Virus record (IMG/VR): IMGVR_UViG_3300047408_000224
Coordinates: 1 to 41,305 of that record
DNA length: 41,305 nucleotides
Strand: one strand, 5' to 3'
From: a virus
Shown: in pieces, positions 906 to 38,943 of the stretch
Numbering within the stretch: position 1 is the stretch's first letter
Layout of the letters: each line of letters opens with the position of its first letter
Position numbers and translations under genes: made by a program
The notes under the pieces: generated by a model
The model's input: the letters and a program-made list of their open reading frames with translations, nothing else
What the model was told of the DNA's origin: nothing
The model's database searches: none

Positions 906-2175
906 GGAGTACCTTCGGCGCGTGGCCGGCCGCGACACGAAGACGAAGACCCAGGGCGTGTACGCCCGCCACAAGACCGGATGCCCGGTGCAGCTCGACG
1001 GCAAGGGCTGCGCCTGCAAGCCGACGTACTACGGCAAGGTCTACGACCGGGCGACGAAGCGGCACCGGCCGACGAAGCGGTACGCCACCGTGAGCGCCGC
1101 GGCGTCCGCCCGCCGGACGCTCGCCGGTGAGGTCGAGCGCGGCGAGACCCCGGCCGGTGAGGTTCTGCGCGTCAAAGATGCGTGCGAACGATTCTCGGAC
1201 GCAATCCGCGACGGCCGCGCACTGAACAAGCACGGCAGGCGCTACAAACCGACCGCGGTCAAAGACGTGACCGAGTGCCTGAAGGTCCACGTCGTCCCCG
1301 TCCTCGGCACGCGCCGCCTGGCAGACGTGCGCCGCGGCGACGTCCAACGGCTCATCGACGACCTCACCCCGCGGCTCTCCGGGTCGCGCGTCCGATCGGT
1401 CGTGAACGCGATCCGGTCGCTCTACCGGTGGGCGGTCATGCGCGACCTCGTCACCGCTGACCCAGCGGCCCGCGTCCTGCTCCCCGCGATGGACGCCACT
1501 CCGCGCGACCGCGTGGCCACACCGCTTGAGATGGAGACGCTGCTCCGCACGCTCGTCGACAACGACCAGGTCGCCGACGCCCTCCCGTACGCGCTCGCGG
1601 TCTACGCGATGGGGCGCCGCGCCGACATCCAGCGTCTGACGTGGGGTCAGGTCGACCGCGACCTTGGCCTTGTCGCGTGGGCCGACGGCAAGACGAAAGC
1701 CGCGACGCGGGTCGTGCCCGCCCCCAAGCCGCTGCGAGCGCTGCTGCTCCGTGCGTGGGGCGCCGCGGGCAAGCCCGGCCCGGAGGCGAAGGTGTGCCCG
1801 CCAATCCGTGACGTCGGGACCCGCCTGCTCGAGACGGGGTCGCTGGCGAAGCGCGCTCGCATCGGGTGGGGGTGGGAGCTCGGCGAGGACCGCGTCACGT
1901 GGACGAAGGCACGCCCGGACGCGCTCGAGCCGATCGGCTTGCACGAGTGCCGGCACACCGCCGCGACGTGGCTCGACCACGCGGGAGTGTCCCCGAAGAT
2001 CGCCTCCGTTCTGATGGGGCACGAGACGCCGGAGCGGCAGCCAGGCGCGGCGCACCTGACGCTCAGCACCTATACCCACGCGCTGCCCGACGAGTTCGAA
2101 CGCGCTCGTCGTACGCTGGACGCGTACATCGCAGATCGGATACGGGAGGCTCGTCGCAGTGCCAATGACGCGTGA
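886..2175 (+). CDS. int: Tyrosine integrase
   Basis: A 429-residue phage integrase that joins attP with a tRNA-Ser attB. Residues 1-85 carry a Cys-containing arm-binding type domain (GCPVQLDGKGCACKP). About 95-200 is the SAM-like core-binding domain, and 210-415 the catalytic domain. Visible catalytic residues are Arg244 or Arg245 (GRRADIQRLTW), Lys269 or Lys271, His353 and Arg356 (HECRH), His379 (MGHE) and the nucleophile Tyr396 (LSTYTHA). The GTG at 886 or the one at 892 could start it; both overlap xis. attP lies 430 bases downstream, beyond an HNH gene. Length and motifs are complete. Confidence 0.95.
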   Translation: MAVPQPEEYLRRVAGRDTKTKTQGVYARHKTGCPVQLDGKGCACKPTYYGKVYDRATKRHRPTKRYATVSAAASARRTLAGEVERGETPAGEVLRVKDACERFSDAIRDGRALNKHGRRYKPTAVKDVTECLKVHVVPVLGTRRLADVRRGDVQRLIDDLTPRLSGSRVRSVVNAIRSLYRWAVMRDLVTADPAARVLLPAMDATPRDRVATPLEMETLLRTLVDNDQVADALPYALAVYAMGRRADIQRLTWGQVDRDLGLVAWADGKTKAATRVVPAPKPLRALLLRAWGAAGKPGPEAKVCPPIRDVGTRLLETGSLAKRARIGWGWELGEDRVTWTKARPDALEPIGLHECRHTAATWLDHAGVSPKIASVLMGHETPERQPGAAHLTLSTYTHALPDEFERARRTLDAYIADRIREARRSANDA

Positions 2176-5257: not shown

Positions 5258-5833
5258 TCAGCAGGCCTTCGCGCCGTTGCCGTGGCAGGTGTCGGCCTTG
5301 CCGGGCCCGGTGACGGGGCTCATCGATGGCCCGACCTGAATCGCGGCCGGGGCCGCGGGGTCGCCCTTCGGGCCTTGGGGTCCTGGCGGTCCCTGCGGCC
5401 CCTGCGGTCCGCGGGCACCGACGCTGCCGATCTGGCCGGCGTGCCCGGGCTGACCCGACGCGCCGGGGGAGCCTGCCGTACCGGCCGGACCGGCAGGTCC
5501 GCGAAGGCCGGTGTCGCCGGTACGTCCTCGCGGTCCACGCGCGCCGGTGTAGCCGCGCGGCCCACGGAGCGACGCCATGTCAGACGAGGTCGCGGACGCC
5601 ATGAGCTTGCGCAGGCAGACGCGGGCAGTGAGGTTCGCGCACGGCGAGTGCGAGACGACCTTCGTGACCTGCGACACCTGCCTGGTGACCTGCGTCACGT
5701 TGCGGGTGATGCGCTGCTGACCAAGCCTGACGCCCTGGATCGCGAACGCGAACCCACCGAGCGTCACGACAAGCGCGACGAGCAGCGTCGCGTTCAAGGT
5801 GCGCCGGCCCATCTGCCAACTACCGATCCTCAT
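5258..5833 (-). CDS. Membrane-anchored collagen-like protein
   Basis: 191 residues. After a short basic start there is one membrane span (about 12-33, [20 protein letters not shown]). A heptad-like region with repeated QVT follows (about 38-60), then two cysteines (65 and 73), then 23 uninterrupted Gly-X-Y triplets (residues 91-159) rich in GPx, a 30-residue tail and a final cysteine. The coiled coil would trimerise a collagen rod. GGAGG lies six bases before the ATG at 5833, which also overlaps the upstream stop. Phage collagen-like proteins are usually tail fibres without a membrane anchor, so an anchored one within the lysis block is odd. It could be a spanin-like or surface protein, or a fibre with a hydrophobic base. 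Confidence 0.85.
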
Positions 5834-19645: not shown

Positions 19646-20566
19646 CTACGAGGCGTTCGTGATGTTCGCGAAGGCCTTGTTGCCGTCGTGGACGTTGAAC
19701 CCGATCCGCATTTCCCAGAGGAACGCGGTCTTGTTCTGCTGCCACAGGTTGTGGAGCGTGCCCGAGACGTCGACCGTCGCCTGGCTGGACTGCCGCACCG
19801 TCATGTCGCGACGCATCGCGAACACGGCGTGGTTGAAGTCGCCGACGACCGCGGCGATCTTGCCCGCCCCGGCGGGGAACCCGTCGAGGTTCGACGTGTA
19901 CCGGATCGGGATGCCGTAGAGGCTGTCCGGCTCGCGGCCGAAGCCCTCGGTGTACACCGGGACCGCGACCTGATCGCCCGCACGCCGCTGATCGCGGAGG
20001 TGCGCACGGACGTCCGAGGCGGCGACGATGCCGGTGGGCATGTAGCCGTCGTCCTCGCACTGCTCGATCGCGGCCGAGACCGCGGTCGCGAACGCGTCGC
20101 CGGCGGTGCCGAGCTCCGTCGTCTGCGTGGTGTTCGTGATCTCCGCGTCGAACGAGCCGACGATCGCCGCACCCGCCTGGTAACCCAGGGCGTGCGCGTC
20201 GATGAGATCCTGGAACGCCGCCTCGACGTCGGCGGACACGAGAACCGTCGGGTCCTCGCGGGCGTCCTCGATGATCTCCTCGGTGTACATCACGATCGTC
20301 GCGATCTTCTTCACGTTGATCGTGAGCTCGGAGAGCTCGGCGCCGGTGACCGGCTTCGCCGCGCCTTCCGCGACGAACGCCGCGGTCGGACGACCGGCGT
20401 AGATCGCGTACTTCTGCCGGCGGCCGACGACGCGCTCGACGCGGGACAGGGACATGACCGCCGACTCGCGCCGGATGCCGTTCTGCAGGGTCTGGCCGTA
20501 CTGCTCGGAGACGAGGTATCCGCCGGAGGCGTCCGTCCCCTCGAGCAGCGGGATCGCGTTGCTCAT
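19646..20566 (-). CDS. Major capsid protein (HK97 fold)
   Basis: 306 residues. IPLLEGTDASGGYLVSEQY at the start, then a spine-helix and P-domain region (TINVKKIATIVMYTEEIIED), an A-domain with Ala-rich helices and IPIRYTSNLDG, and a typical ending RQSSQATVDVSG...WEMRIGFNVHDGNKAF, all familiar in HK97-like capsid proteins of actinophages. There is no long delta domain, matching the separate scaffold gene upstream. AAAGGAG precedes the ATG. The 127-base leader (20567-20693) has no other gene. Confidence 0.93.
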   Translation of the reverse strand: MSNAIPLLEGTDASGGYLVSEQYGQTLQNGIRRESAVMSLSRVERVVGRRQKYAIYAGRPTAAFVAEGAAKPVTGAELSELTINVKKIATIVMYTEEIIEDAREDPTVLVSADVEAAFQDLIDAHALGYQAGAAIVGSFDAEITNTTQTTELGTAGDAFATAVSAAIEQCEDDGYMPTGIVAASDVRAHLRDQRRAGDQVAVPVYTEGFGREPDSLYGIPIRYTSNLDGFPAGAGKIAAVVGDFNHAVFAMRRDMTVRQSSQATVDVSGTLHNLWQQNKTAFLWEMRIGFNVHDGNKAFANITNAS

Positions 20567-21792: not shown

Positions 21793-23214
21793 TTACGCCG
21801 GGCGTCGCGTGTTGGGAACCTGTGGGACCTGCACCGGCGGGATACCGGTCTCGCTGTTGATCGCCTTCACCTCGTCGGAGACCTGGGTCTCCGACCAGTC
21901 GGGGTGAAGGAACCGGACACGCTGCTCGAGGCTGATGGCCTCGGCGGCGACGAGGTTGTTGAGCATGAGGGCCGCCTCGACATCGTCCTGCGGCAGACCG
22001 TTGTGCCGCTCGATGACGGGGGCGCTGTCGCGGCTCGCGTAGGTGCGGCCGAAGCCGTTCTCCGAGGTCGGGCGTCCGTCGATGACCTGGGCGCCGCGCA
22101 GCAGGCGACGCACCCCGCGGTCGAAGTAGCGGCCCTTCCCGGCTGCCTCCAGCAGGGAGTGGTTCATCTTCAGCTTCATCGCCGTGCCGGAGATCGCGCC
22201 ACCGTCGACCGACCTGCCGACTGCCTGCGGGGAGACGCCCGCGAAGGTGAGCGTGGTGTCGATCAGGTGGTCGATCCACATGACGGTCTGGTCGGCCTGG
22301 AACTGGTAGTCGATGATCTGGATCGGGGCGGTCTTCGCGTCGTCGCCGACGTTTCGGTCCTGCCGGATGTACACGTCGTCGCCTTCGGGCAGGCGTCCGT
22401 TGTGGAGGTACTTCTCGTCGACCATCGCGCGCTTCCGGCCGGCGAGGCGCATGTTCTTCTGGCCGATCGTCCCGGCGTCGTTCAGAGCGAGGAACCGGTC
22501 CTGCAGCCCGACGTAGTCCGAGTAGCCGCGGGTGGGGTCGGCGTCGATCGTGTTCGGGATGAACGTCGCCAGCGGCCAGTCAATCCCGGTGAGCACCTGC
22601 TCCTGGCGACCCTTCGTCGGGTCGAAGCTGTTGAGATCCTGCTCGCCGCCGAGCGTCGTCGTCGTGCCGCGGAACAGGCGGGAGGTAACCGCACCTGCCT
22701 CGTAGGTCTCCATCAGGCGGTACCGCTCGATGCTGCCAGTCGCCCACTCGGTGACGAACGTCGCACCGACGCAAAACCGGCCGGCGAAGTGGGGAATGAC
22801 CCTGTTGCGGGAGACGAACTCGATGATCGGCACGTCCAGCAGCGACGGGTCCACGACGATGCGGCCCCAGACCTCGCCCTCGGAGGAGGCGATCACAGCG
22901 CCGCGGTGGAGCTCGGCGGACAGGTCGTTGTCGTCGACGATCCGGGCGAGGTTGACGCTGTCGGCGTCGTTCTCCGGGCGGATGTCTGCGGGCTCGCCGA
23001 AGAGGAGGTGCGCGGAGGCGCGGGAGATCATCCGTGGCAGCGGGGAAACCATGTACTCGTGCTGCCACGCGATCGACCGCTGCTGCTTCAGCCGGTCCGT
23101 GTCCGAGGCGCGGAGGGCGGAGAAGAGCTCGATCTCCTCCCAGACCTTCGCGAGCCCGGGGGGCGGCCAGTTCCCGCGGCCGAGCATCGTGTTCAACGTC
23201 ATGAAGAGCCCCAT
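21793..23214 (-). CDS. Portal protein (SPP1 gp6-like)
   Basis: 473 residues. A longer frame exists upstream, but ATG 23214 (MGLFMTLNTMLGRG) gives the normal portal start. It is coupled to an 11-codon leader (MTSSLRTQGPS) with its own GGAGG, whose stop overlaps this ATG as TGATG. Portal wording is clear: WQHEYMVSPLPRMISRASAH, FGEPADIRPEND, a wing with WGRIVVDPSLLDVPIIEFVS, and the stem-crown helices with IDTTLTFAGVSPQAVGR. The protein forms the dodecameric DNA gate and terminase dock. Confidence 0.92.
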   Translation of the reverse strand: MGLFMTLNTMLGRGNWPPPGLAKVWEEIELFSALRASDTDRLKQQRSIAWQHEYMVSPLPRMISRASAHLLFGEPADIRPENDADSVNLARIVDDNDLSAELHRGAVIASSEGEVWGRIVVDPSLLDVPIIEFVSRNRVIPHFAGRFCVGATFVTEWATGSIERYRLMETYEAGAVTSRLFRGTTTTLGGEQDLNSFDPTKGRQEQVLTGIDWPLATFIPNTIDADPTRGYSDYVGLQDRFLALNDAGTIGQKNMRLAGRKRAMVDEKYLHNGRLPEGDDVYIRQDRNVGDDAKTAPIQIIDYQFQADQTVMWIDHLIDTTLTFAGVSPQAVGRSVDGGAISGTAMKLKMNHSLLEAAGKGRYFDRGVRRLLRGAQVIDGRPTSENGFGRTYASRDSAPVIERHNGLPQDDVEAALMLNNLVAAEAISLEQRVRFLHPDWSETQVSDEVKAINSETGIPPVQVPQVPNTRRPA

Positions 23215-23251: not shown

Positions 23252-24691
23252 TCAGTCCTCCGGTGAGGTCGAGGGGAACGCCAGGGCGACAGGGGCCGCA
23301 CCGGCGATGAGTGCGTCAGGGCCGTGGTCGTCGCGCTTGACGATCTCGCCGCGGTCGTCGAGCTGCAGGCCACGGAGCTGCTCGAGCAGCCTGGTGTTCT
23401 CCGGGCTGATCGCGATGATCCGGTGGTCGAGGCCCTGCGCGGTGCGGTTGAACAGCTCGCGGAGGAACCCGACGGTGCGCTTCTTCCGCTTGCCGAAGTT
23501 CACGGCGTAGATCGTCACCTCATCAGGGGCGATCGAGGCGAACGTCTTCATCTGCTGGCCGCCGGCCTGGTCGTACCGAGCCTGCACGAGCGGATGGTCG
23601 TAGCGGGCTGCGGCGTCGAGAGCTTGGCGGGTGAGCGCCGACGGCTCACCGCGTGAAGACTCGATCTCGCCGGGGGGGATGTAGATGCCGCCACCGGCAA
23701 GCTGCCACACGATGAGCATGTGAGTGGAACCGAGCCCCCAGTCGATGCCGAGCTGGATCCCCTCGCCAAGCGGCGGTGGGATGGTGCCGGCGCGGCGCTG
23801 CTGGTCGAGCTGACGGCCGAGGCGTTCGGCTGCGTCGATCCCGGCGTGGTCGTAGACGAACTCGGTGTCCGGTGCGACGAACGCGTCATCGGGGACTTCG
23901 GGGTACTCCATCCGGAAGCGGTCGAGGTCGCCGAGCGCGGCGATCGTGCGACGCTTCCACTCCTGGTCGCGGTCGGGGCGGACCATCCACGGGAAGAACA
24001 GTGGCTTCAGGCCGGAGGCGCCGGAGCAGGCCTGTGACCAGAGGGCGGCGAACTGTGCGCCGATCCCTCCGGACTTCTCGCCGCCGTTGCCGGTGGAGAC
24101 GAGCGCGACGCCGCCGCCACCTTCGATGGTGGGGAGGATCGCCTGCCAGATGTCGGCTGCCTGCCGCTGGAAGGCGAACTCGTCGAGGATGACGAAGCCC
24201 GCGGTCTCCGAGCGGGCGGCGGCCGGTGTGCCCATGAGCGCCCGGATCGTCGAGCCGCCGATGTCCAGGGTCGTGACGGCGTCACGGGTCTTCGCTGGTG
24301 CGTGCAGGTTCGCGAGGACGTGCGCGGACAGCGGGTCGGCGGCGATCCTGTCGCGCATCCGGCGGATGCGGTCGAGAAGCTCGCCGGCGTCGTCACCGGT
24401 CTTGCAGAGGATGAGGATGCGGATGCCCTGCCGGTGGATCGCGAGCCACAGGGCGAACGCGAGCACGACCCATGAGAGTCCGAGCCGCCTGGCCTTCAGG
24501 ACGATGATCTGCTCGCCGGCCTGCAGGTCGCGGAGCGTGTCGGCCTGGAAGTCCCAGAGGGCGAACGGGCGAACGGTGCCGTCGGGGTCCTCGATCGTGC
24601 AGTGCCGTTCGGTGAACGTCGCGGCGTTCGCGGCGCACTCGCGGCGGTCGAGCTCTTGCTTTGCGGCTACCCGCTCAGCGAGCGCGGGCAC
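23252..24691 (-). CDS. terL: Terminase large subunit
   Basis: 479 residues. ATPase domain: adenine/Walker A-like LKARRLGLSW at 65-74 (deviant Arg-rich form), Walker B VILDEF with Asp170-Glu171, coupling motif LVSTGN at about 197-202. Nuclease domain (RNase H fold): GIDWGLG with Asp317, and the closing DDHGPDALIAG. It packages DNA into the procapsid. The GTG at 24691 lies within the end of a 27-codon frame, so translation is probably coupled. The packaging type (cos or headful) is not evident; the overlapping ends of the window would suit headful packaging. Confidence 0.95.
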   Translation of the reverse strand: MPALAERVAAKQELDRRECAANAATFTERHCTIEDPDGTVRPFALWDFQADTLRDLQAGEQIIVLKARRLGLSWVVLAFALWLAIHRQGIRILILCKTGDDAGELLDRIRRMRDRIAADPLSAHVLANLHAPAKTRDAVTTLDIGGSTIRALMGTPAAARSETAGFVILDEFAFQRQAADIWQAILPTIEGGGGVALVSTGNGGEKSGGIGAQFAALWSQACSGASGLKPLFFPWMVRPDRDQEWKRRTIAALGDLDRFRMEYPEVPDDAFVAPDTEFVYDHAGIDAAERLGRQLDQQRRAGTIPPPLGEGIQLGIDWGLGSTHMLIVWQLAGGGIYIPPGEIESSRGEPSALTRQALDAAARYDHPLVQARYDQAGGQQMKTFASIAPDEVTIYAVNFGKRKKRTVGFLRELFNRTAQGLDHRIIAISPENTRLLEQLRGLQLDDRGEIVKRDDHGPDALIAGAAPVALAFPSTSPED

Positions 24692-24833: not shown

Positions 24834-25040
24834 CTACCAGCGTTCTTCGGGGCAGACGCCCCACGCCGCCGCGGTCCGCGGACGGTCGTCTGCGCGCTCC
24901 TGACGCTTCTCGAAGCCGAGCGTGCGTGACGGACGCCGAAGGTCGACAGCACCGAGATCACGGAGCGTGTCGATCAGGTGCCGGCGAGCAGCGAACGCGT
25001 CGTGCTCGCGCTGCTGCTCGGCGTTGTCGTTGAGGCTCAC
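24834..25040 (-). CDS. Small protein between terminase genes
   Basis: 68 residues, helical and charged (LNDNAEQQREHDAFAARRHL, IDTLRDLGAVDLRRPSRTLG). The ATG overlaps the small terminase stop. It could be an accessory of terminase, but no family is recognised. Confidence 0.65.
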   Translation of the reverse strand: MSLNDNAEQQREHDAFAARRHLIDTLRDLGAVDLRRPSRTLGFEKRQERADDRPRTAAAWGVCPEERW

Positions 25041-25483
25041 GCCGTGCGCTTCGCGTCGAGGCCATCGGCGAGCGCCCGAAGCTGCTCATCGCTCATCGCT
25101 GCGAGGTCGTGCGAGATCGACCCCGAGTGCTCGACCTTCACGTTCTCCCGGTACTTCGTCGGATCGCGCGCCTTGAGCAGGAAGATCAGCAGCGTGTCCG
25201 AGTACGTCGTCTCCGTCGCGATCTGCTGGTCGCGGTAGAACACCGCCTTGTCGACGCCTTCGACCGCGCGGCGCATCGCCTCGCGTTCGAGCTTCTCCGT
25301 CACGCGCTGCTCGGCGTCGTGCCACTCCAGGGCGAAGTCCTCGTCCCGCTGGCGAAGCGCGTACGCCGACGACCTCGCGACCCCGGCCTCACGGCACGCG
25401 TACAGGACAGCGCCGGTCCGCTCGAGCGCTTCGAGGAACGCGGCGCGCCTTTTAGGTGTCCATGCCGTCCGCTGCGCTGCCAT
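25037..25483 (-). CDS. terS: Terminase small subunit
   Basis: 148 residues. A helix-turn-helix start (WTPKRRAAFLEALERTGAVL, CREAGVARSSAYALRQRD) is followed by the oligomerisation segment common in phage small terminases (AVFYRDQQIATETTYSDTLL then FLLKARDPTKYRENV). It would recognise the packaging site and dock TerL. GAGGAG lies six bases before the ATG. Confidence 0.88.
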   Translation of the reverse strand: MAAQRTAWTPKRRAAFLEALERTGAVLYACREAGVARSSAYALRQRDEDFALEWHDAEQRVTEKLEREAMRRAVEGVDKAVFYRDQQIATETTYSDTLLIFLLKARDPTKYRENVKVEHSGSISHDLAAMSDEQLRALADGLDAKRTA

Positions 25484-25495
25484 CGAGGTCTCCTC

Positions 25496-25675
25496 TCACC
25501 AGCCGTAGCGGGTGGTGTCGTCGGGGTGGAGCATCTCGCCCATCCAGTGCGTGTCGCGGGCGACGTGCTCGGCCGTGGGTGGCTGCTGGCTTGCCTGTGC
25601 ACGTGCTGCGCGCACAGCTTCGGCGAGGTCGTGCATGAGTTCGCGCTTCCACTCGTCGACCTGCTCGGCGGTCAT
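25496..25675 (-). CDS. 59-aa hypothetical protein upstream of terS
   Basis: Helical first half (EQVDEWKRELMHDLAEAVRA) and a Trp/His-containing tail (HVARDTHWMGEMLHPDD). ATG overlaps the previous stop by four bases; it ends 12 bases before terS. Function unknown. Confidence 0.65.
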   Translation of the reverse strand: MTAEQVDEWKRELMHDLAEAVRAARAQASQQPPTAEHVARDTHWMGEMLHPDDTTRYGW

Positions 25676-25797
25676 GGCTCATCGGTCTCGCGAGGGAGGT
25701 TCCCGATGACGGTGACGACGGTGGAGTAGCTGCCGATGATGTAGCCGGCGGTGAAGATCACCGAGCCGATCGCGAACATGAACAGGGCGGTGATCAT
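25672..25797 (-). CDS. 41-aa single-span membrane protein
   Basis: The first 28 residues are a hydrophobic span (ITALFMFAIGSVIFTAGYII), followed by a short polar tail (NLPRETDEP). Starts and stops overlap both neighbours by four bases, which supports translation. No role known. Confidence 0.6.
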   Translation of the reverse strand: MITALFMFAIGSVIFTAGYIIGSYSTVVTVIGNLPRETDEP

Positions 25798-25985
25798 GCT
25801 GCGGCCTTCGCGACGGTGGGTGGATCGCAGACGAGGAGCACGTTTTCAGCGGCCCGCCATGCTGCTGCCTCGGTGGGCTTCTCGCCCTTCACCCCGAACG
25901 TGCTGCTGGTGACGGTCCACGTCCACATGTCGGGCTCGGTGAGCGACGGGTAGACGCTGATCCTGGGGTCGCGCGGCCCGGTCAT
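25794..25985 (-). CDS. 63-aa hypothetical protein
   Basis: ATG 25985 overlaps the previous stop (TGATG). A beta-like stretch (MWTWTVTSSTFGVKGEKPT) and an Ala-rich helix (EAAAWRAAENVLLV) suggest a small compact fold. It lies between two tiny membrane proteins. Unknown function. Confidence 0.6.
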   Translation of the reverse strand: MTGPRDPRISVYPSLTEPDMWTWTVTSSTFGVKGEKPTEAAAWRAAENVLLVCDPPTVAKAAA

Positions 25986-26110
25986 CACTGTTCCTCGTCG
26001 GGATGCAGGAGGGCGTCCAGGCGCATCCAGCACCAGAGGCCCGCGATGTACGCGACGGTGGCGGCGAGGATTCCGATACGGACGAGATCGGGGGTGATCC
26101 GTTGGCGCAT
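25985..26110 (-). CDS. 41-aa single-span membrane protein
   Basis: A basic start (MRQRITPDLVR) precedes one hydrophobic span (IGILAATVAYIAGLWCWM), and the tail is acidic (HPDEEQ). First protein gene after the tRNA. Two such mini membrane proteins in one cluster suggest an envelope or assembly accessory role, which I cannot define. Confidence 0.6.
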   Translation of the reverse strand: MRQRITPDLVRIGILAATVAYIAGLWCWMRLDALLHPDEEQ

Positions 26111-26155
26111 GACCTGGCCTCACCTGTGCGAGAGGGGGGACGGTGTGCTTCGAGG

Positions 26156-26227
26156 TGGCGCAGCCCGGAAACGAACCGGGGTCTCAGCGACATGAACGCT
26201 GCGTGGGAGCCTCTCCACCACTGCGCG
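26156..26227 (-). tRNA. tRNA-Met-like (anticodon CAT)
   Basis: A 72-base cloverleaf: acceptor CGCGCAG with CTGCGCC (six of seven pairs; C1-C72 mismatch), D stem GTGG/CCAC, anticodon stem CAGCG/CGCTG with loop TTCATGT, four-base variable loop, T stem CCCGG/CCGGG. No CCA is encoded in full (CCT follows the discriminator A). The anticodon stem lacks the three G-C pairs of initiators, so elongator Met or, if modified, tRNA-Ile(CAU). Oddities are T at the usual A58 in the T loop and the unpaired first pair. It lies between the sigma gene and the late genes. Confidence 0.7.
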
Positions 26228-26437
26228 ACGTGGGACCGGCGACGACCTCGGCTGAGGTTGCAGGGCAGGTCGGGGTCGTCCTTACCGGTGGGGTGACCGG
26301 TCCTGGGCGGCTGTCCTTCCTGGACGCCACCCGTAGGGGCTACACCGAATCAGGGCGTAGCTCTCCCAGCGCGGAAAGTAGCACGAAGTGTCGGACGGAT
26401 GTCGTTTTTGGTCGACACACGGGCAGATCTCCCTGCT
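26228..26437 (-). promoter_or_regulatory. Non-coding interval between sigma gene and tRNA
   Basis: 210 bases without a credible gene. An 8-bp hairpin with a seven-base loop lies at 26339-26361. ACCGGT twice (about 26285-26302) can form a 6-bp stem. TACTTT (minus strand, near 26380) with ACGACA 19 bases before it is a weak promoter candidate. It is the natural place for a promoter of the tRNA and late genes, perhaps one read by the phage sigma factor, but no consensus can be fixed from a single site. Confidence 0.35.
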
Positions 26438-27022
26438 CTACGCGGCGTCCATGAGGACCCTGAGTTTCCGGCGTGCGCGCATGATCGCGTTGTCGACGGT
26501 CTTCCGTCTACCGATCGCCTCATAGGCCTCCCCGGCGAACGCGTAGCGCTCCATGCACTCTCGCTCGAGGTCGCTCAGGGTGGCGATGCCGAGCAGCACC
26601 GTGCGGAAGCGCTCACGGCCGATGAGGATGTCGCACGGGTCGCGGGCCTCGTCGGTCAGCCATCCGCCGTCGAAGTCCTCGGCGTCGGGTTCTGCGGGGG
26701 CGTCGAAGCTGAGGGCGGTGTTCAGGGTCTCGTGCTTGCGACGGCGTGAGGCGTTCACGGCGTCGATCGCACGGCGACGCCCACAGAGGTCTGCGAACGT
26801 CCAGAACGATGCGCCGTGCCCGGGCTGGTAGTCGCGGGCGGCCTGGGCGATACCGAGACGAACCTCCTGCAGCAGGTCGTCCGGTTCGCCGCCGGCGATC
26901 CAGTACGAGCGTGCGATGTGGCGGGCGAGATGGTCGCAGGCAATCACGACCCCGTTCGTGTCCCCCGTCGCGAGCATGCGGCGGATGCGGGCGTCCCGAA
27001 GGTCGCGAACCTCGGTGGTCAT
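26438..27022 (-). CDS. Phage RNA polymerase sigma factor, SigH-like
   Basis: 194 residues. Region 2 spans about 25-95: ARSYWIAGGEPDDLLQEVRL, then ASFWTFADLCGRRRAIDAV with basic SRRRKH. Region 4 is at about 146-190: LSDLERECMERYAFAGEAYE, then AIGRRKTVDNAIMRARRKL. The wording follows Bacillus SigH (sigma-30) closely, including the SF..FA.LC helix, the RKH..LN..LSFD linker and SDLER...VDNA..R.KRKL. It is not an ECF of the RpoE type. It should direct host polymerase to specific phage promoters. It overlaps the gene before it by four bases, with the tRNA and all late genes downstream. Likely a late-gene activator. Confidence 0.85.
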   Translation of the reverse strand: MTTEVRDLRDARIRRMLATGDTNGVVIACDHLARHIARSYWIAGGEPDDLLQEVRLGIAQAARDYQPGHGASFWTFADLCGRRRAIDAVNASRRRKHETLNTALSFDAPAEPDAEDFDGGWLTDEARDPCDILIGRERFRTVLLGIATLSDLERECMERYAFAGEAYEAIGRRKTVDNAIMRARRKLRVLMDAA

Positions 27023-27336
27023 GACGTCGGCCGTTCGATGAGCGCGAGGAGTCGATCTCGCACACCAATGGCATCGGCGAGATGGGCGGCCTGGGTCCGG
27101 TCGGGCGGCAGGACGTCGGCGCCGGCGGCGATGATCGCCTCGAAGACGTCGACGGGGATCTCGAGCAACGGCCGGATATCACTGGTCCGGGTTCCGGGCT
27201 CGAGCACCTCCTCGACGAGCCACCCGACGCCATCCGGGGGAATCGTGAGGTTCCGGAGGTCGCCGGCGGCACCGGAGCGAGCGACGTAGACGCGAACGCG
27301 GTCCGCTGACCAGTCGCGTTCGATGTGGACCCTCAT
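27019..27336 (-). CDS. Hypothetical protein upstream of sigma
   Basis: 105 residues. A beta-type start (RVHIERDWSADRVRVYVARS) and a helical end (FEAIIAAGADVLPPDRTQAA, RDRLLALIER). It overlaps genes on both sides by four bases, so it is made together with the sigma factor; an anti-sigma or partner role is possible but unsupported. No family recognised. Confidence 0.65.
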   Translation of the reverse strand: MRVHIERDWSADRVRVYVARSGAAGDLRNLTIPPDGVGWLVEEVLEPGTRTSDIRPLLEIPVDVFEAIIAAGADVLPPDRTQAAHLADAIGVRDRLLALIERPTS

Positions 27337-27914
27337 GCTGCGCGTGGTTCATCGGCGGCGACGATGGTGCCGTCGACCAGGCGGACCTTCACGCCGAGCT
27401 CGGCCGCCATCCGAGCCCGGGCCCTCTCGATCGTCCGGGCAGATCCGAGATGCGGGGCGAAGTGCGCGACCTCAGCGGCCCGATACCCCTTCCAGTCGTC
27501 CCAGATCTCCCGGTCCTTCTCCGCCGTCGATCCGAGCCGTGACGGCTGCGGTTCGATGAGGCCCGCCTCGACGTCGACCTTCGTCTCGATCAGGTCGAGC
27601 TGCCGGGTGATGATCTCCAGCTCCTGGGCGATCACCTGGGTCGGGTTGTCGACCGGCTGGGGGAGGGTGTCGTGGTCGGAGCCGCGGGACTGCCGTGCGA
27701 TGCGGCCGGCGGCGATGACGCTCATCGCGCTCAGGCGATGGATCGCGGTGTCGATGCGTGTGCCGATCGACTGGACGGCGCGTTCCTGCTGTCGAGCGTT
27801 CGCACGCTCGTGCTGCGCTTTCTGCCAGGCGAGGGCGAGCTCGTCGGCGTTCTGCTGTTCCCACTGGGGGTCGACGCGCTCGGCGAGCGGGTCGATGAGT
27901 CGTACTGCTGCCAC
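27333..27914 (-). CDS. Hypothetical protein, first gene of the sigma operon
   Basis: 193 residues. GTG 27914 with GAGAGGA five bases upstream. A Gln/Ala-rich helical first part (PQWEQQNADELALAWQKAQH) and a C-terminal segment (WDDWKGYRAAEVAHFAPHLG, RTIERARARMAAELG, VKVRLVDGTIV) that looks like a helix-turn-helix followed by a strand. It could be a DNA-binding regulator. It follows a leader with three hairpins and five short repeats. Family not recognised. Confidence 0.65.
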   Translation of the reverse strand: MAAVRLIDPLAERVDPQWEQQNADELALAWQKAQHERANARQQERAVQSIGTRIDTAIHRLSAMSVIAAGRIARQSRGSDHDTLPQPVDNPTQVIAQELEIITRQLDLIETKVDVEAGLIEPQPSRLGSTAEKDREIWDDWKGYRAAEVAHFAPHLGSARTIERARARMAAELGVKVRLVDGTIVAADEPRAA

Positions 27915-27952
27915 GGTGGTCCTCTCTCGGTGAGGGCCGCGGTTTCCTTCTC

Positions 27953-28017
27953 CACCGGGGAAGGTAGCCGGTGATCCCGACGGAAGTCGGGTTCGGTGGT
28001 CGCCCCCCTTGGGGGGC
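27953..28017. promoter_or_regulatory. Three tandem hairpins in the leader of the sigma operon
   Basis: CACCGG/CCGGTG (27953-27973), CCCGAC-GGAA-GTCGGG (27976-27991, GNRA-type tetraloop on the plus strand) and GCCCCCC-TT-GGGGGGC (28002-28017, followed by CTTT on the plus strand). They lie just ahead of the gene starting at 27914. They may form a structured 5' leader on the minus strand and, for the last, a terminator for plus-strand read-through. Confidence 0.5.
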
Positions 28018-28057
28018 CTTTAGGGGGGTTCTTACCTTCCCTTCTCTTCACTTCATG

Positions 28058-28111
28058 CGCGTGACCGCGTGACGTCACGACGCGTGACATACCGCGTGAC
28101 CGGCGCGTGAC
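28058..28111. repeat. Five CGCGTGAC repeats (iteron-like cluster)
   Basis: CGCGTGAC occurs at 28058, 28066, 28081, 28093 and 28104, all in the same orientation, with one inverted GTCACG at 28074-28079. A pyrimidine-rich, less GC-rich stretch (about 28029-28055) adjoins it. It could be an iteron origin or a multi-operator upstream of the sigma operon. The rest of this 347-base gap (28112-28261) shows nothing I can name. Confidence 0.7.
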
Positions 28112-28261
28112 TGTATGCGAACGTACGATCGCCTACGGGTCCGTCCGGGAGGGTCGGCAGCATCGTCGGTCCTGGCGTGTGGTCGGCGGTGCCAGGGTCT
28201 CGCTCAGGCGAGGGGACGGAACGGCCGCAGGACCAGGAGGCCCGCAGCTATGCGGACAGAT

Positions 28262-28474
28262 CTACCGCCCGAGAAAGCGGGCAATGACGGCGGGATCGCG
28301 GAGGTCTTCGACCGCGACACCGGACTCGACTGCGTCAAGGGCCTGGTGCCAGGCGAGGTGGGCGACGAGCGCGGCGCGGACGAACTCGGCCTGGGTGATT
28401 CCGAGGCGGGCGGCTTCGTCGTCGACGGCGCGTTTGAGGTCGTCGTGCATGCGGGTGGCAATGCGGGCCGCCAT
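28262..28474 (-). CDS. Ribbon-helix-helix DNA-binding protein
   Basis: 70 residues. ARIATRMHDDLKRAVDDEAA, RLGITQAEFVRAALVAHL is the beta-strand, helix, turn, helix pattern of CopG/Arc-type repressors; the tail (AVEDLRDPAVIARFLGR) is a short cap. No toxin gene partner is adjacent. A 7-bp inverted repeat 43 bases before its start could be its operator. It lies between the repressor and the sigma operon and probably regulates one of them. Confidence 0.8.
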   Translation of the reverse strand: MAARIATRMHDDLKRAVDDEAARLGITQAEFVRAALVAHLAWHQALDAVESGVAVEDLRDPAVIARFLGR

Positions 28475-28516
28475 GACGGCAGGACACTAGGCGCGGCCCG
28501 GTGGCGCGAGTTTGGC

Positions 28517-28537
28517 GTGTGCCTTCTGACGGCACAC
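28517..28537. promoter_or_regulatory. Perfect inverted repeat upstream of the RHH gene
   Basis: GTGTGCC, loop TTCTGAC, GGCACAC. It is the strongest symmetry in the 200-base gap 28475-28674, which is otherwise without a gene. Either the operator of the RHH protein or a terminator for the repressor transcript arriving from 28796. Confidence 0.5.
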
Positions 28538-28674
28538 GGTAGGCGTTCGTTCGGGTTCGGTGTGAGTGCTTGCGTGCCAGGGGAGAGTCCGGGCAGCGGT
28601 TGTCGTGCGGGCTCATGCGGGCGATGTCCAACGGGAGCCACGGATCCGGTCTGCGAGGGAAAGGGCTCGACGCG

Positions 28675-28926
28675 ATGGGCGATGTGAGGCAGTTGCCGCT
28701 GATGCGGGTGTTGGACGGTGACGGCGATCCTCACGCGGTCGCCCGTGGCCGGCTCGAAGCGGCGAAGGCCGTGGCGGCTGGCTACCGCGCGGCGCTCACG
28801 GCGCTTGACGCTTCAGACGTCGCGGAGCTGGAGTGGCATCGGGAGCGTCTTCAGGACGCTGAGCTTGGCGTGCGGAATGCTTCCGCAGAGCATCTGCTTC
28901 GCGCTTCTTCCGGGCCTCCTCAGTAG
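28675..28926 (+). CDS. Possible 83-aa plus-strand protein overlapping the repressor end
   Basis: MGDVRQLPLMRVLDGDGDPH start, then a helical Ala/Glu-rich body (AKAVAAGYRAALTALDASDV, AELEWHRERLQDAELGVRN). It overlaps the last 131 bases of the minus-strand repressor tail to tail. It has plausible composition but no strong ribosome site (GGGAAAGGG is rather far) and no promoter seen. Real gene or chance frame: undecided. Confidence 0.35.
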   Translation: MGDVRQLPLMRVLDGDGDPHAVARGRLEAAKAVAAGYRAALTALDASDVAELEWHRERLQDAELGVRNASAEHLLRASSGPPQ

Positions 28927-29170
28927 ACCCGGCGTCGCGGCGGGCGACGGCGATGGGGTACTCGTAGAACTCGCCGGGGTCGACGTCTAGGGCTGCGGCG
29001 AGCGCTTCGAGGATGTAGGCCTCGGGGACGCGGCCGGGCTTGGACTCGAGGAGTTGGATGGTGCGTTCGCCGATGCCGGTGTCGCCGAGGCGGACGGTGG
29101 CGTGCGAGAGGTCTCGGACGCTCATGTCGCCGCGCAGCGCACGGAGTTTCTGTGCGAGCAGTTCCGGCAC
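28796..29170 (-). CDS. Immunity repressor (Cro/CI-type helix-turn-helix)
   Basis: 124 residues from GTG 29170; frames open further upstream run into the switch and beyond and are rejected. Residues 4-70 form a five-helix XRE domain (LLAQKLRALRGDMSVRDLSH, GIGERTIQLLES, YILEALAAALDVDPGEFYEY). The tail is basic then Pro-rich, with no peptidase (LexA-like) domain, so induction would not be by RecA cleavage. It is divergent from the Cro-like gene at 29237, with operator words between. It should hold the early operon silent in the lysogen. Confidence 0.82.
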   Translation of the reverse strand: MPELLAQKLRALRGDMSVRDLSHATVRLGDTGIGERTIQLLESKPGRVPEAYILEALAAALDVDPGEFYEYPIAVARRDAGSTEEARKKREADALRKHSARQAQRPEDAPDATPAPRRLKRQAP

Positions 29171-29185
29171 CCCCGGGATGCAATC

Positions 29186-29208
29186 CGTTGTCCAACGTCT
29201 TGACAACG
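29186..29208. promoter_or_regulatory. Switch inverted repeat CGTTGTC / GACAACG
   Basis: 7-bp arms nine bases apart, overlapping the -35 element of the early promoter and lying just upstream of the repressor start. It differs in sequence from the ACGGAC sites, so the switch may be read by two proteins, perhaps the repressor and the Cro-like protein. Confidence 0.6.
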
Positions 29209-29229
29209 TACGGACAGTTCGCGTACAGT
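29200..29229 (+). promoter_or_regulatory. Early promoter
   Basis: A perfect -35 TTGACA (29200-29205), 18-base spacer and TACAGT (29224-29229), eight bases before the Cro-like ATG, so the transcript is leaderless or has a very short leader. It drives the whole rightward operon, which continues past the window ends to the integrase. Operator words cover the spacer and the -10. Confidence 0.75.
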
Positions 29230-29233
29230 CCGT
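29210..29233. promoter_or_regulatory. Paired operators in the switch
   Basis: ACGGACAGTTCG at 29210-29221 on the plus strand abuts ACGGACTGTACG at 29222-29233 on the minus strand. Each is a quasi-palindrome of form CGRACnGTYCG, and the pair is itself inverted (ACGGAC...GTCCGT). They sit on the early promoter spacer and -10, where a bound repressor would exclude polymerase. Confidence 0.65.
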
Positions 29234-29236
29234 TCC

Positions 29237-29440
29237 ATGAGGAAGCCAACCCCCCTGAAGATGGCCATCGTCGCCTCCGGGCAGCGGCAGAAGGACATCG
29301 CCGCCGCCATCGGAACGGACGAGGCCACGCTCTCGCGGATCGTGAACGGCCTGCACGCCGACGAGCGTATGCGCGAGGCCCTTGCCGCCGAGCTGCATAC
29401 GACGCCCGACGTTCTGTGGCCCGAAGCGCAGGCCGCGTGA
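29237..29440 (+). CDS. Cro-like helix-turn-helix protein
   Basis: 67 residues, first early gene. Compact XRE domain: KMAIVASGQRQKDIAAAIGT, DEATLSRIVNGLHADERMRE, AALAAELHTTPDVLW. It is divergent from the larger repressor and has no tail, the Cro arrangement. It may repress the immunity repressor or tune the early promoter. Stop overlaps the next ATG by one base (TGATG). Confidence 0.82.
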   Translation: MRKPTPLKMAIVASGQRQKDIAAAIGTDEATLSRIVNGLHADERMREALAAELHTTPDVLWPEAQAA

Positions 29441-37466: not shown

Positions 37467-38035
37467 CCGAAGCCCCGAGATCGGGCAGCACGCGCGAAGT
37501 GCAGAAGCTTCGGCAGGCGCTACGCGAGGTCGTGAAGTTGGCCGACGCGCCCTGGTCACCAGAAGGCGAGCATCTGCGCCTACGGGCGATCCGGAGCGTG
37601 GCGACGAACGTGCTACCCGCCCGCCGCACTGAAGAGGACTGGCCGCTCGGCCGGTGCATGGAGTGCGACGCCCACCACAACCGCGTCCGCGAGGCCATCG
37701 GCAACGAGAGCGGTGGCGGCTTCCCGATGTGCGAGGAGCACCTATGGACCGAACACACACCTTCGGGCAGCACGACGCTCGCGCCCGAGCTCAGCGCCGA
37801 AGACGTTCGCGTCCTCCGGATCTTCCCCCCGCATTCCGCGGCCGGCCTCCGCCACCACACCCTTCGCGAACGCATCGCCACCGCGAACACCCCGCTCCCC
37901 TGGCTCACCGTCATGGGCCTACGCCACCTCGGCTACGTCGCTCGATACAACGGGTGGTGGAAGCGCACCGCCGCCGGCGACACCTACCTCCACCATCTCG
38001 ACGCGCCACCGGCGCCACAGGAGACCCTCGCATGA
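37463..38035 (+). CDS. Putative DNA-binding protein with zinc knuckle and winged helix
   Basis: 190 residues. Helical start (VQKLRQALREVVKLADAPWS), a Cys/His knuckle (CMECDAHHNRV to MCEEHLW) and a C-terminal segment (LSAEDVRVLRIFPPHSAAGL to MGLRHLGYVARYNGWWKRT) with the form of a winged helix. Probably binds DNA; it directly precedes the second recombinase (four-base overlap) and might be its accessory factor. Confidence 0.6.
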   Translation: MTEAPRSGSTREVQKLRQALREVVKLADAPWSPEGEHLRLRAIRSVATNVLPARRTEEDWPLGRCMECDAHHNRVREAIGNESGGGFPMCEEHLWTEHTPSGSTTLAPELSAEDVRVLRIFPPHSAAGLRHHTLRERIATANTPLPWLTVMGLRHLGYVARYNGWWKRTAAGDTYLHHLDAPPAPQETLA

Positions 38036-38943
38036 AGACCGCCGTCGTCATCCGCGACCAGCTCGCCCTGGACTGGTCGACCCCCGAGGAAGTGCTCGAC
38101 GCCGTCCCGGTGATCGAGAAGAAGCGCCCACCGTCCAAGCCCCGCCCCCGTCGACCCGTCACCGGGACGATCGTCGAAGAGCCGACGAAGCCGAACCTCA
38201 CGCTCGTCCGCGCCGAGCCCGTCACGGGGGAGATCCTTCTCGACCGTCGCGGCCTCCCGCGCACCAGGGCGACGATGCCCGGCGCCGGCCGCGGACGCCG
38301 CCCCGTCACGAAAGGACGCGAGTACCCGCCGGACCCGATGACGTCGAAGGAGATCGACGCGATGCTCCGCTACCTCGCGGAGCCCCGGAACAAGTACGAG
38401 ACCCGCCACGGCCACACGTCCCGCATCCGCCTCCGTGCGCTCATCGCGCTCCTGTGGCGGTCAGGTCTCCGTATCAGCGAGGCGCTCGACCTCGAGCCGC
38501 GCGACCTGCAGCGCGAGCACTTCTGCCTCACCGTCCGGCACGGCAAGGGCGACAAGCGCCGCATCAGTGCGATGGACGAGTGGGGATGGAAGATGCTCGA
38601 GCCGTGGCTCGAGGTCCGCGCCGACATCGAACGCGGCCCCGTGTTCTGCGTCGTGTCGGGTGTCTCCGCCGGGATGCGCTGGTCGAGCGCCGACGTCCGC
38701 CGCCAGCTGAAGAACACCGCGCTCGCCGCCGGCGTTCAGCGCCGCGTGGCCCCGCACCAGTTTCGGCACGCGCACGCAGCTGACCTGTACCGCGAGAAGG
38801 TCGACGTGTTCGTCGTGCAGCGGCAGCTGGGTCACGCCCGCCTGGACATCACGGCGCATTACCTCTCGTCGATCGCGCCGGTCGAACTGCTGGAGCCGAT
38901 AGGTCGCCGCAAGGCGCCGCAGATGCCGGTCACGACGCTCTGA
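38032..38943 (+). CDS. Second tyrosine recombinase
   Basis: 303 residues. Complete catalytic set: Arg147 (SGLRISEAL), Lys172 (HGKGDKRR), His242 and Arg245 (HQFRHAHA), His268 (QLGHARLD) and Tyr277 (ITAHYLS). The catalytic domain begins at about 103. Residues 1-100 are Pro/Arg-rich and disordered, with a twice-repeated PVTG phrase, so the usual core-binding domain is missing. This matches a widespread actinobacterial group of recombinases. It is unlike the integrase at 886. Roles could be dimer resolution or exchange of the neighbouring gene cassettes. A longer upstream frame is rejected, since ATG 38032 overlaps the preceding stop. Confidence 0.9.
   Translation: MKTAVVIRDQLALDWSTPEEVLDAVPVIEKKRPPSKPRPRRPVTGTIVEEPTKPNLTLVRAEPVTGEILLDRRGLPRTRATMPGAGRGRRPVTKGREYPPDPMTSKEIDAMLRYLAEPRNKYETRHGHTSRIRLRALIALLWRSGLRISEALDLEPRDLQREHFCLTVRHGKGDKRRISAMDEWGWKMLEPWLEVRADIERGPVFCVVSGVSAGMRWSSADVRRQLKNTALAAGVQRRVAPHQFRHAHAADLYREKVDVFVVQRQLGHARLDITAHYLSSIAPVELLEPIGRRKAPQMPVTTL

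What the first reader, a model, noticed from the sequence alone, without database searches (positions are those of the whole stretch)
26438..27022. Phage-encoded SigH-like sigma factor upstream of the late genes
A full two-region sigma factor with SigH-type wording is encoded immediately upstream of the tRNA and the whole virion and lysis block. Phage sigma factors are well known in T4/SPO1-type phages, but a SigH-like one in a temperate actinobacterial siphovirus is unusual. It could replace the antiterminator or activator normally needed for late genes, or redirect host stress/stationary transcription in the lysogen.
Basis: partly seen in the sequence, partly recalled or inferred. Interest (0 to 1): 0.75.

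Follow-up and report, generated by a model that had tools for sequence, protein, structure and literature searches.

The report
Phage SigH-type sigma with shortened helix
A temperate virus, probably of soil Thermoleophilia bacteria, carries its own SigH-type RNA polymerase sigma factor just ahead of its particle-building genes, and this protein shares with a few other uncultured phages an unusually shortened DNA-binding motif that no examined host SigH has.

Summary
The ORF at 26438-27022 (-) is real and encodes a sigma-70-family protein whose nearest family is the Spo0H/SigH group (five SigH models at 79-84 bits, the general sigma model next at 43), though far below every SigH cut-off. It is the last gene of a translationally coupled three-gene operon, followed by a tRNA-Met, TerS, TerL and the virion block. 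"Full two-region" needs correcting: region 2 is intact, but the region-4 helix-turn-helix is 5 residues short. AlphaFold gives a first HTH helix of 4 residues, against 8 in a Conexibacter SigH control. Three other high-GC phage lineages recognised as SigH-type share a short HTH (a further, weaker case is unconfirmed); 0 of 89 cellular SigH proteins do. Two Thermoleophilia prophages share the head module (TerL 43-48% identity), so the host is probably Thermoleophilia, a class in which 275 of 299 genomes carry a SigH-type gene. The phage sigmas fall outside the cellular SigH clade. Best reading: a phage late-gene sigma, working like PBSX Xpf, with altered -35 recognition. Position supports this; no promoter motif was found, and head-module relatives lack the sigma. 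New variant of a known kind.

The parts
26438..27022 (-). SigH (Spo0H)-type sigma factor ORF, 194 aa
26714..26956 (-). Region 2 (protein residues 23-103): keeps the DDLLQE core-binding motif; 25 of the 44 residues here that are at least 85% conserved in cellular SigH are retained
26453..26587 (-). Region 4 (residues 146-190) with the HTH contracted by 5 residues: YEAIG--RRKTVDNAIMRARRKL; AlphaFold H3 = 167-170, H4 = 173-193
27019..27336 (-). Upstream operon gene, 105 aa, no known family; overlaps the sigma start (ATGA)
27333..27914 (-). First gene of the sigma operon, 193 aa, no known family
28058..28111 (-). Five copies of GTCACGCG in 54 bp upstream of the sigma operon; candidate operator array (function inferred)
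   Evidence: and reading of the sequence
26228..26437 (-). 210-bp gap between the sigma stop and the tRNA: candidate site of a late promoter; no SigH-type or sigma-70-type consensus and no terminator found
26154..26227 (-). tRNA-Met (CAT)
25037..25483 (-). Terminase small subunit
   Evidence: phrog_4044 E=5e-35
23252..24691 (-). Terminase large subunit; 43-48% identical to two Thermoleophilia prophage proteins
21793..23214 (-). Portal protein
19646..20566 (-). Major capsid protein
28796..29170 (-). Putative repressor-like protein, divergent from the cro-like gene (by inspection)
29237..29440 (+). Cro-like HTH gene
29200..29229 (+). The only sigma-70-consensus promoter found in 4000-41305; it would drive the rightward early genes
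922..2175 (+). Tyrosine-recombinase-type integrase (by inspection; not scanned)

Best explanation
The gene encodes a divergent phage sigma factor of the Spo0H/SigH type that redirects host core RNA polymerase to the phage's packaging, virion and lysis genes after induction, doing the job of an antiterminator or late activator. Its sigma-2 domain (shown) would bind core and the -10 element (inferred). Its sigma-4 domain keeps the helix that reads DNA but has a contracted helix-turn-helix (shown), so recognition of the -35 element is probably relaxed, altered or dependent on a partner (inferred). It is expressed from a three-gene operon that lies beyond the repressor/cro region (layout shown, timing inferred). 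That it starts late transcription is inferred from position and from analogy with PBSX Xpf, not shown.
For: SigH-type by five HMMs and by fold. Last gene of a coupled operon ending just before tRNA-Met, TerS and TerL. The same 'sigma upstream of TerL' layout in L144/L145, L157 and L050, and across the contig ends in L146 (the join is inferred, since no overlap of the ends was found). No sigma-70-type promoter in 4000-29199 on either strand, though only about 1 would be expected by chance. Confident AlphaFold sigma-2 and sigma-4. Precedent: Xpf of PBSX, a 20-kDa sigma2-sigma4 positive control factor (PMC10141391).
Against: No SigH consensus on the late strand and no dyad motif in the late gaps beyond what 2 of 10 shuffles reached. 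No terminator found between sigma and the late genes, so read-through is possible. Phages and prophages with related head modules lack the sigma. In L150 and L156 the sigma sits among DNA-metabolism genes, not next to TerL.
Confidence: 0.5

Rival explanations
1. A mimic of the host SigH: it drives or competes for the host SigH regulon (stationary-phase or stress genes) in the lysogen or during infection, as sporulation-like phage sigmas do in Bacillota.
For: 275 of 299 Thermoleophilia genomes carry a SigH-type gene and the Conexibacter copy passes a curated SigH cut-off (238.5 against 208 bits), so a host regulon probably exists. Phage sigF/sigG homologues alter host programmes (PMC9429907).
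Against: The phage sigma lies outside the cellular SigH clade (96/96). Joining it with the Thermoleophilia rows is rejected at p-AU 0.034, though that set included one outlying row, L183. The HTH is contracted, and several conserved region 2.3-2.4 residues are changed (RQIIT to RRAID, KTATR to NASRR).
Confidence: 0.2
2. The sigma directs another phage operon or an accessory function, and the late genes are simply read through from its operon.
For: No terminator found from the sigma operon into the late block. In L150, L156 and L146 the next genes are for DNA modification or recombination. Head-module relatives manage without it.
Against: The repeated position upstream of TerL in several otherwise dissimilar phages.
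Confidence: 0.15
3. A promoter-blind appropriator: with damaged -35 recognition it mainly occupies core polymerase and lowers host transcription.
For: The core-binding motif is kept while the HTH is contracted. A fused gp55-gp33 protein is described as an effective competitor of sigma-70 transcription (PMC2988020).
Against: The reading helix KTVDNAIMRARRKL is well kept in every short-HTH member, which suggests continued DNA contact.
Confidence: 0.08

Closest known systems
Spo0H/SigH (NF006148, TIGR02859)
   Same: Best HMM and fold match over both regions; keeps the K-x-V-D-N-A signature of region 4
   Different: 83.6 and 82.5 bits against cut-offs of 208 and 294.8; HTH 5 residues short; outside the cellular clade
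Xpf, positive control factor of PBSX (B. subtilis)
   Same: Small sigma2-sigma4 protein of a temperate phage-like element, linked to its induction (PMC10141391)
   Different: Listed there as Group IV (ECF-like); not compared directly here for want of its sequence
T4 gp55/gp33 late transcription pair
   Same: A phage-encoded sigma-2 that directs late genes, with an abnormal sigma-4 function (PMC2988020)
   Different: There sigma-2 and sigma-4 functions are two proteins plus a sliding clamp; here one protein, and no homology was tested
Sporulation-like phage sigmas (SigF/SigG type)
   Same: Phage copies of a sporulation-linked sigma
   Different: Reported only from phages of Bacillota (PMC9429907); a different sigma branch

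Membership tests
Sigma-70 family | Sigma70_r2 above the Pfam gathering score | tested here: met
   39.7 bits against 24
Sigma-70 family | Region 4 recognised above the gathering score | tested here: not met
   14.2 bits against 25.7, with the HTH contraction
Spo0H/SigH equivalog | Score above the curated cut-off of a SigH model | tested here: not met
   83.6 against 208; 82.5 against 294.8
Spo0H/SigH equivalog | SigH is the best-scoring sigma subfamily | tested here: met
   79-84 bits against 43 for the general sigma model and 30 for SigF
Spo0H/SigH equivalog | Groups within cellular SigH | tested here: not met
   22 cellular rows form a clade at 96/96 without the phage rows; long branches limit the test
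Spo0H/SigH equivalog | Full-length region-4 HTH | tested here: not met
   Y-to-K spacing 7, against 12 in typical cellular SigH; 0 of 89 cellular proteins are short
Phage late sigma (Xpf-like function) | Gene lies at the early/late junction upstream of the terminase | tested here: met
Phage late sigma (Xpf-like function) | Common promoter motif before late operons | tested here: inconclusive
   Best dyad in 5 of 7 gaps, reached by 2 of 10 shuffles
Phage late sigma (Xpf-like function) | Needed for late transcription | not testable with these tools
   needs an experiment

The most novel reading that the evidence does not exclude
High-GC phages have evolved a class of single-chain sigma factors whose sigma-4 HTH is contracted, perhaps more than once, so that promoters are chosen mainly by the -10 element with a phage partner replacing -35 reading: a natural one-protein counterpart of the T4 gp55/gp33 arrangement.
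Probability: 0.15. Interest if true: 0.75.

Novelty: new variant of a known kind. Interest (0 to 1): 0.5.

Why it matters
Phage sigma factors of temperate siphophages are known from few cases, and the sporulation-like ones were reported only from phages of Bacillota (PMC9429907). A SigH-type sigma in phages of a deep actinobacterial class, with a contracted sigma-4 HTH seen in several phage lineages and in no examined host SigH, gives a small natural test of how much of sigma-4 promoter selection needs, and of how late genes are switched on in phages of Thermoleophilia, for which no phage sigma paper was found in the library searched.

Tried and rejected
Direct viral-contig search with the protein alone: none. 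A recent capture of host SigH: not supported by the trees. One origin for all short-HTH sigmas: neither shown nor rejected (p-AU 0.134). SigH promoter consensus and shared dyad motifs: nothing beyond chance. Operon partners conserved with sigma: not found in related loci. The exact short-HTH DNA pattern in Actinomycetota genomes: 0 of 397 and 0 of 399, partly the same genomes. The same pattern in viral contigs gave 16, but only L150/L230 and L155/L238 are sigmas, the rest chance matches. L165 as a family member: weak, no SigH model hit, so not counted. Fecal and Listeria 'phage' hits with SigH-like genes are unannotated records and may be host DNA (inference).

Full report
What is there. The ORF at 26438-27022 on the minus strand is open for 194 codons, starts with ATG overlapping the stop of the gene before it (ATGA), and shows the codon-position GC pattern of a coding frame (0.70/0.50/0.87). 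Pfam finds sigma region 2 at E=4e-10 and region 4 only at E=0.035, below its cut-off. PHROGs finds sigma families. NCBIfam places it with the Spo0H-type SigH: five SigH models give 79-84 bits, the general sigma model 43 and SigF 30; no SigH cut-off is reached. The best solved relative by sequence is sigma-H 3mzy, and by fold the B. subtilis SigH chain in 9a4r.

Surroundings. The window is a whole IMG/VR virus record, 41,305 bp, 69% GC, without end repeats. Three overlapping genes, 27914 to 26438, end with the sigma; then come a 210-bp gap, a tRNA-Met, four small genes, TerS, TerL, portal and MCP. Upstream lie a gap with five GTCACGCG copies in 54 bp (28058-28111) and a divergent repressor/cro-like pair. 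No terminator-like site lies on the minus strand in 25600-29300. The one sigma-70-type promoter in 4000-41305 faces the early genes; in such GC-rich DNA few would be expected by chance either.

The shortened HTH. In cellular SigH the tyrosine of the first HTH helix and the lysine that opens the reading helix are usually 12 apart (YQEISEELNRHVKSIDN); here they are 7 apart (YEAIGRRKTVDN). AlphaFold with 40 sequences gives mean pLDDT 87.7, with region 4 at about 95-97: H3 is 4 residues, the turn 2, H4 residues 173-193. The same alignment with a Conexibacter SigH as target gives H3 of 8 residues and a turn of 3. Among related viral sigmas, L150 and L155/L156 have the same spacing of 7 and L157 has 4; L163, L144, L146 and L050 have a normal HTH. 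L165 has 8 but matches no SigH model, so I do not count it. Of 89 cellular SigH proteins none is short. The exact DNA pattern was absent from 397 Actinomycetota and 399 Thermoleophilia genomes, which overlap in part.

Relatives and host. The other high-GC phage lineages with such a sigma (L144/L145, L146, L150, L155/L156, L157, L050, L163, and weakly L165) were all found in uncultured viral contigs; no actinophage record among 50,697 phage records matched. A careful tree puts 22 cellular SigH rows in one clade (96/96), the phage rows outside, and the window beside L163 (89/88); branches are long, so the inner order of the phage rows is unsure. The host is best read from the head module: a Thermoleophilia prophage (G185) has TerL at 43% (1e-101), portal at 35%, MCP at 30% and two further matches in order, and a second prophage (G395) shows TerL at 46-48% and portal at 32-35%, against about 23-31% for TerL in the best named phages. 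Neither prophage shows a SigH-like gene by tblastn or signature search, and the nearest MCP relatives L032 and L033 have no sigma region 2. SigH-type genes are present in 275 of 299 Thermoleophilia genomes.

Position in other phages. The sigma lies 7 to 12 genes before TerL in L144/L145, L157 and L050. In L146 it heads towards a contig end, and the other end of that contig carries genes that look like TerS, TerL and portal by inspection, then MCP; joining the ends is my inference. In L150 and L156 the neighbours are DNA-metabolism genes. A tRNA-Met lies near the sigma in the window, L144/L145, L146 and L162.

How it most likely works. Shown: a SigH-type sigma with intact region 2 and a contracted HTH, at the early/late junction, repeated in other phages. 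Inferred: binding to host core and starting late transcription. The precedent is Xpf of PBSX, listed as a sigma2-sigma4 positive control factor (PMC10141391); T4 gp55/gp33 shows that phage late sigmas can do with an abnormal sigma-4 function (PMC2988020). A motif test across seven late gaps did not find a promoter signal beyond shuffles, and no SigH consensus occurs on that strand. Against a host-mimic role stand the HTH, the tree and changed region 2.3-2.4 residues.

Verdict. A real and uncommon gene, correctly spotted; 'full two-region' should be replaced by 'region 2 plus a contracted region 4'. Its late-gene role is likely but unproven. New variant of a known kind.

Noticed in passing
28058-28111: Five copies of GTCACGCG in 54 bp upstream of the sigma operon, possibly an operator array
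   Followed up: partly
Thermoleophilia genomes (L065 and others): A Spo0H-type SigH is present in 275 of 299 genomes of the class; the Conexibacter copy passes a curated SigH cut-off
   Followed up: partly
L146:7905-9005: The sigma ORF continues into a long C-terminal extension with a possible coiled coil: a fusion, or two genes called as one
   Followed up: no
L041, L043, L044, L046, L047, L167: A cluster of low-GC viral contigs (up to 378 kb) with SigH-like sigmas carrying a K-x-x-VDNALMRIRKK ending
   Followed up: no
5258-5833: Collagen-like GxY repeats in a late-block protein (by inspection)
   Followed up: no
922-2175 and 38032-38943: Two tyrosine-recombinase-like ORFs in one phage (by inspection, not scanned)
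   Followed up: no
window 26154-26227; L144; L146; L162: tRNA-Met (CAT) recurs near the sigma gene
   Followed up: partly
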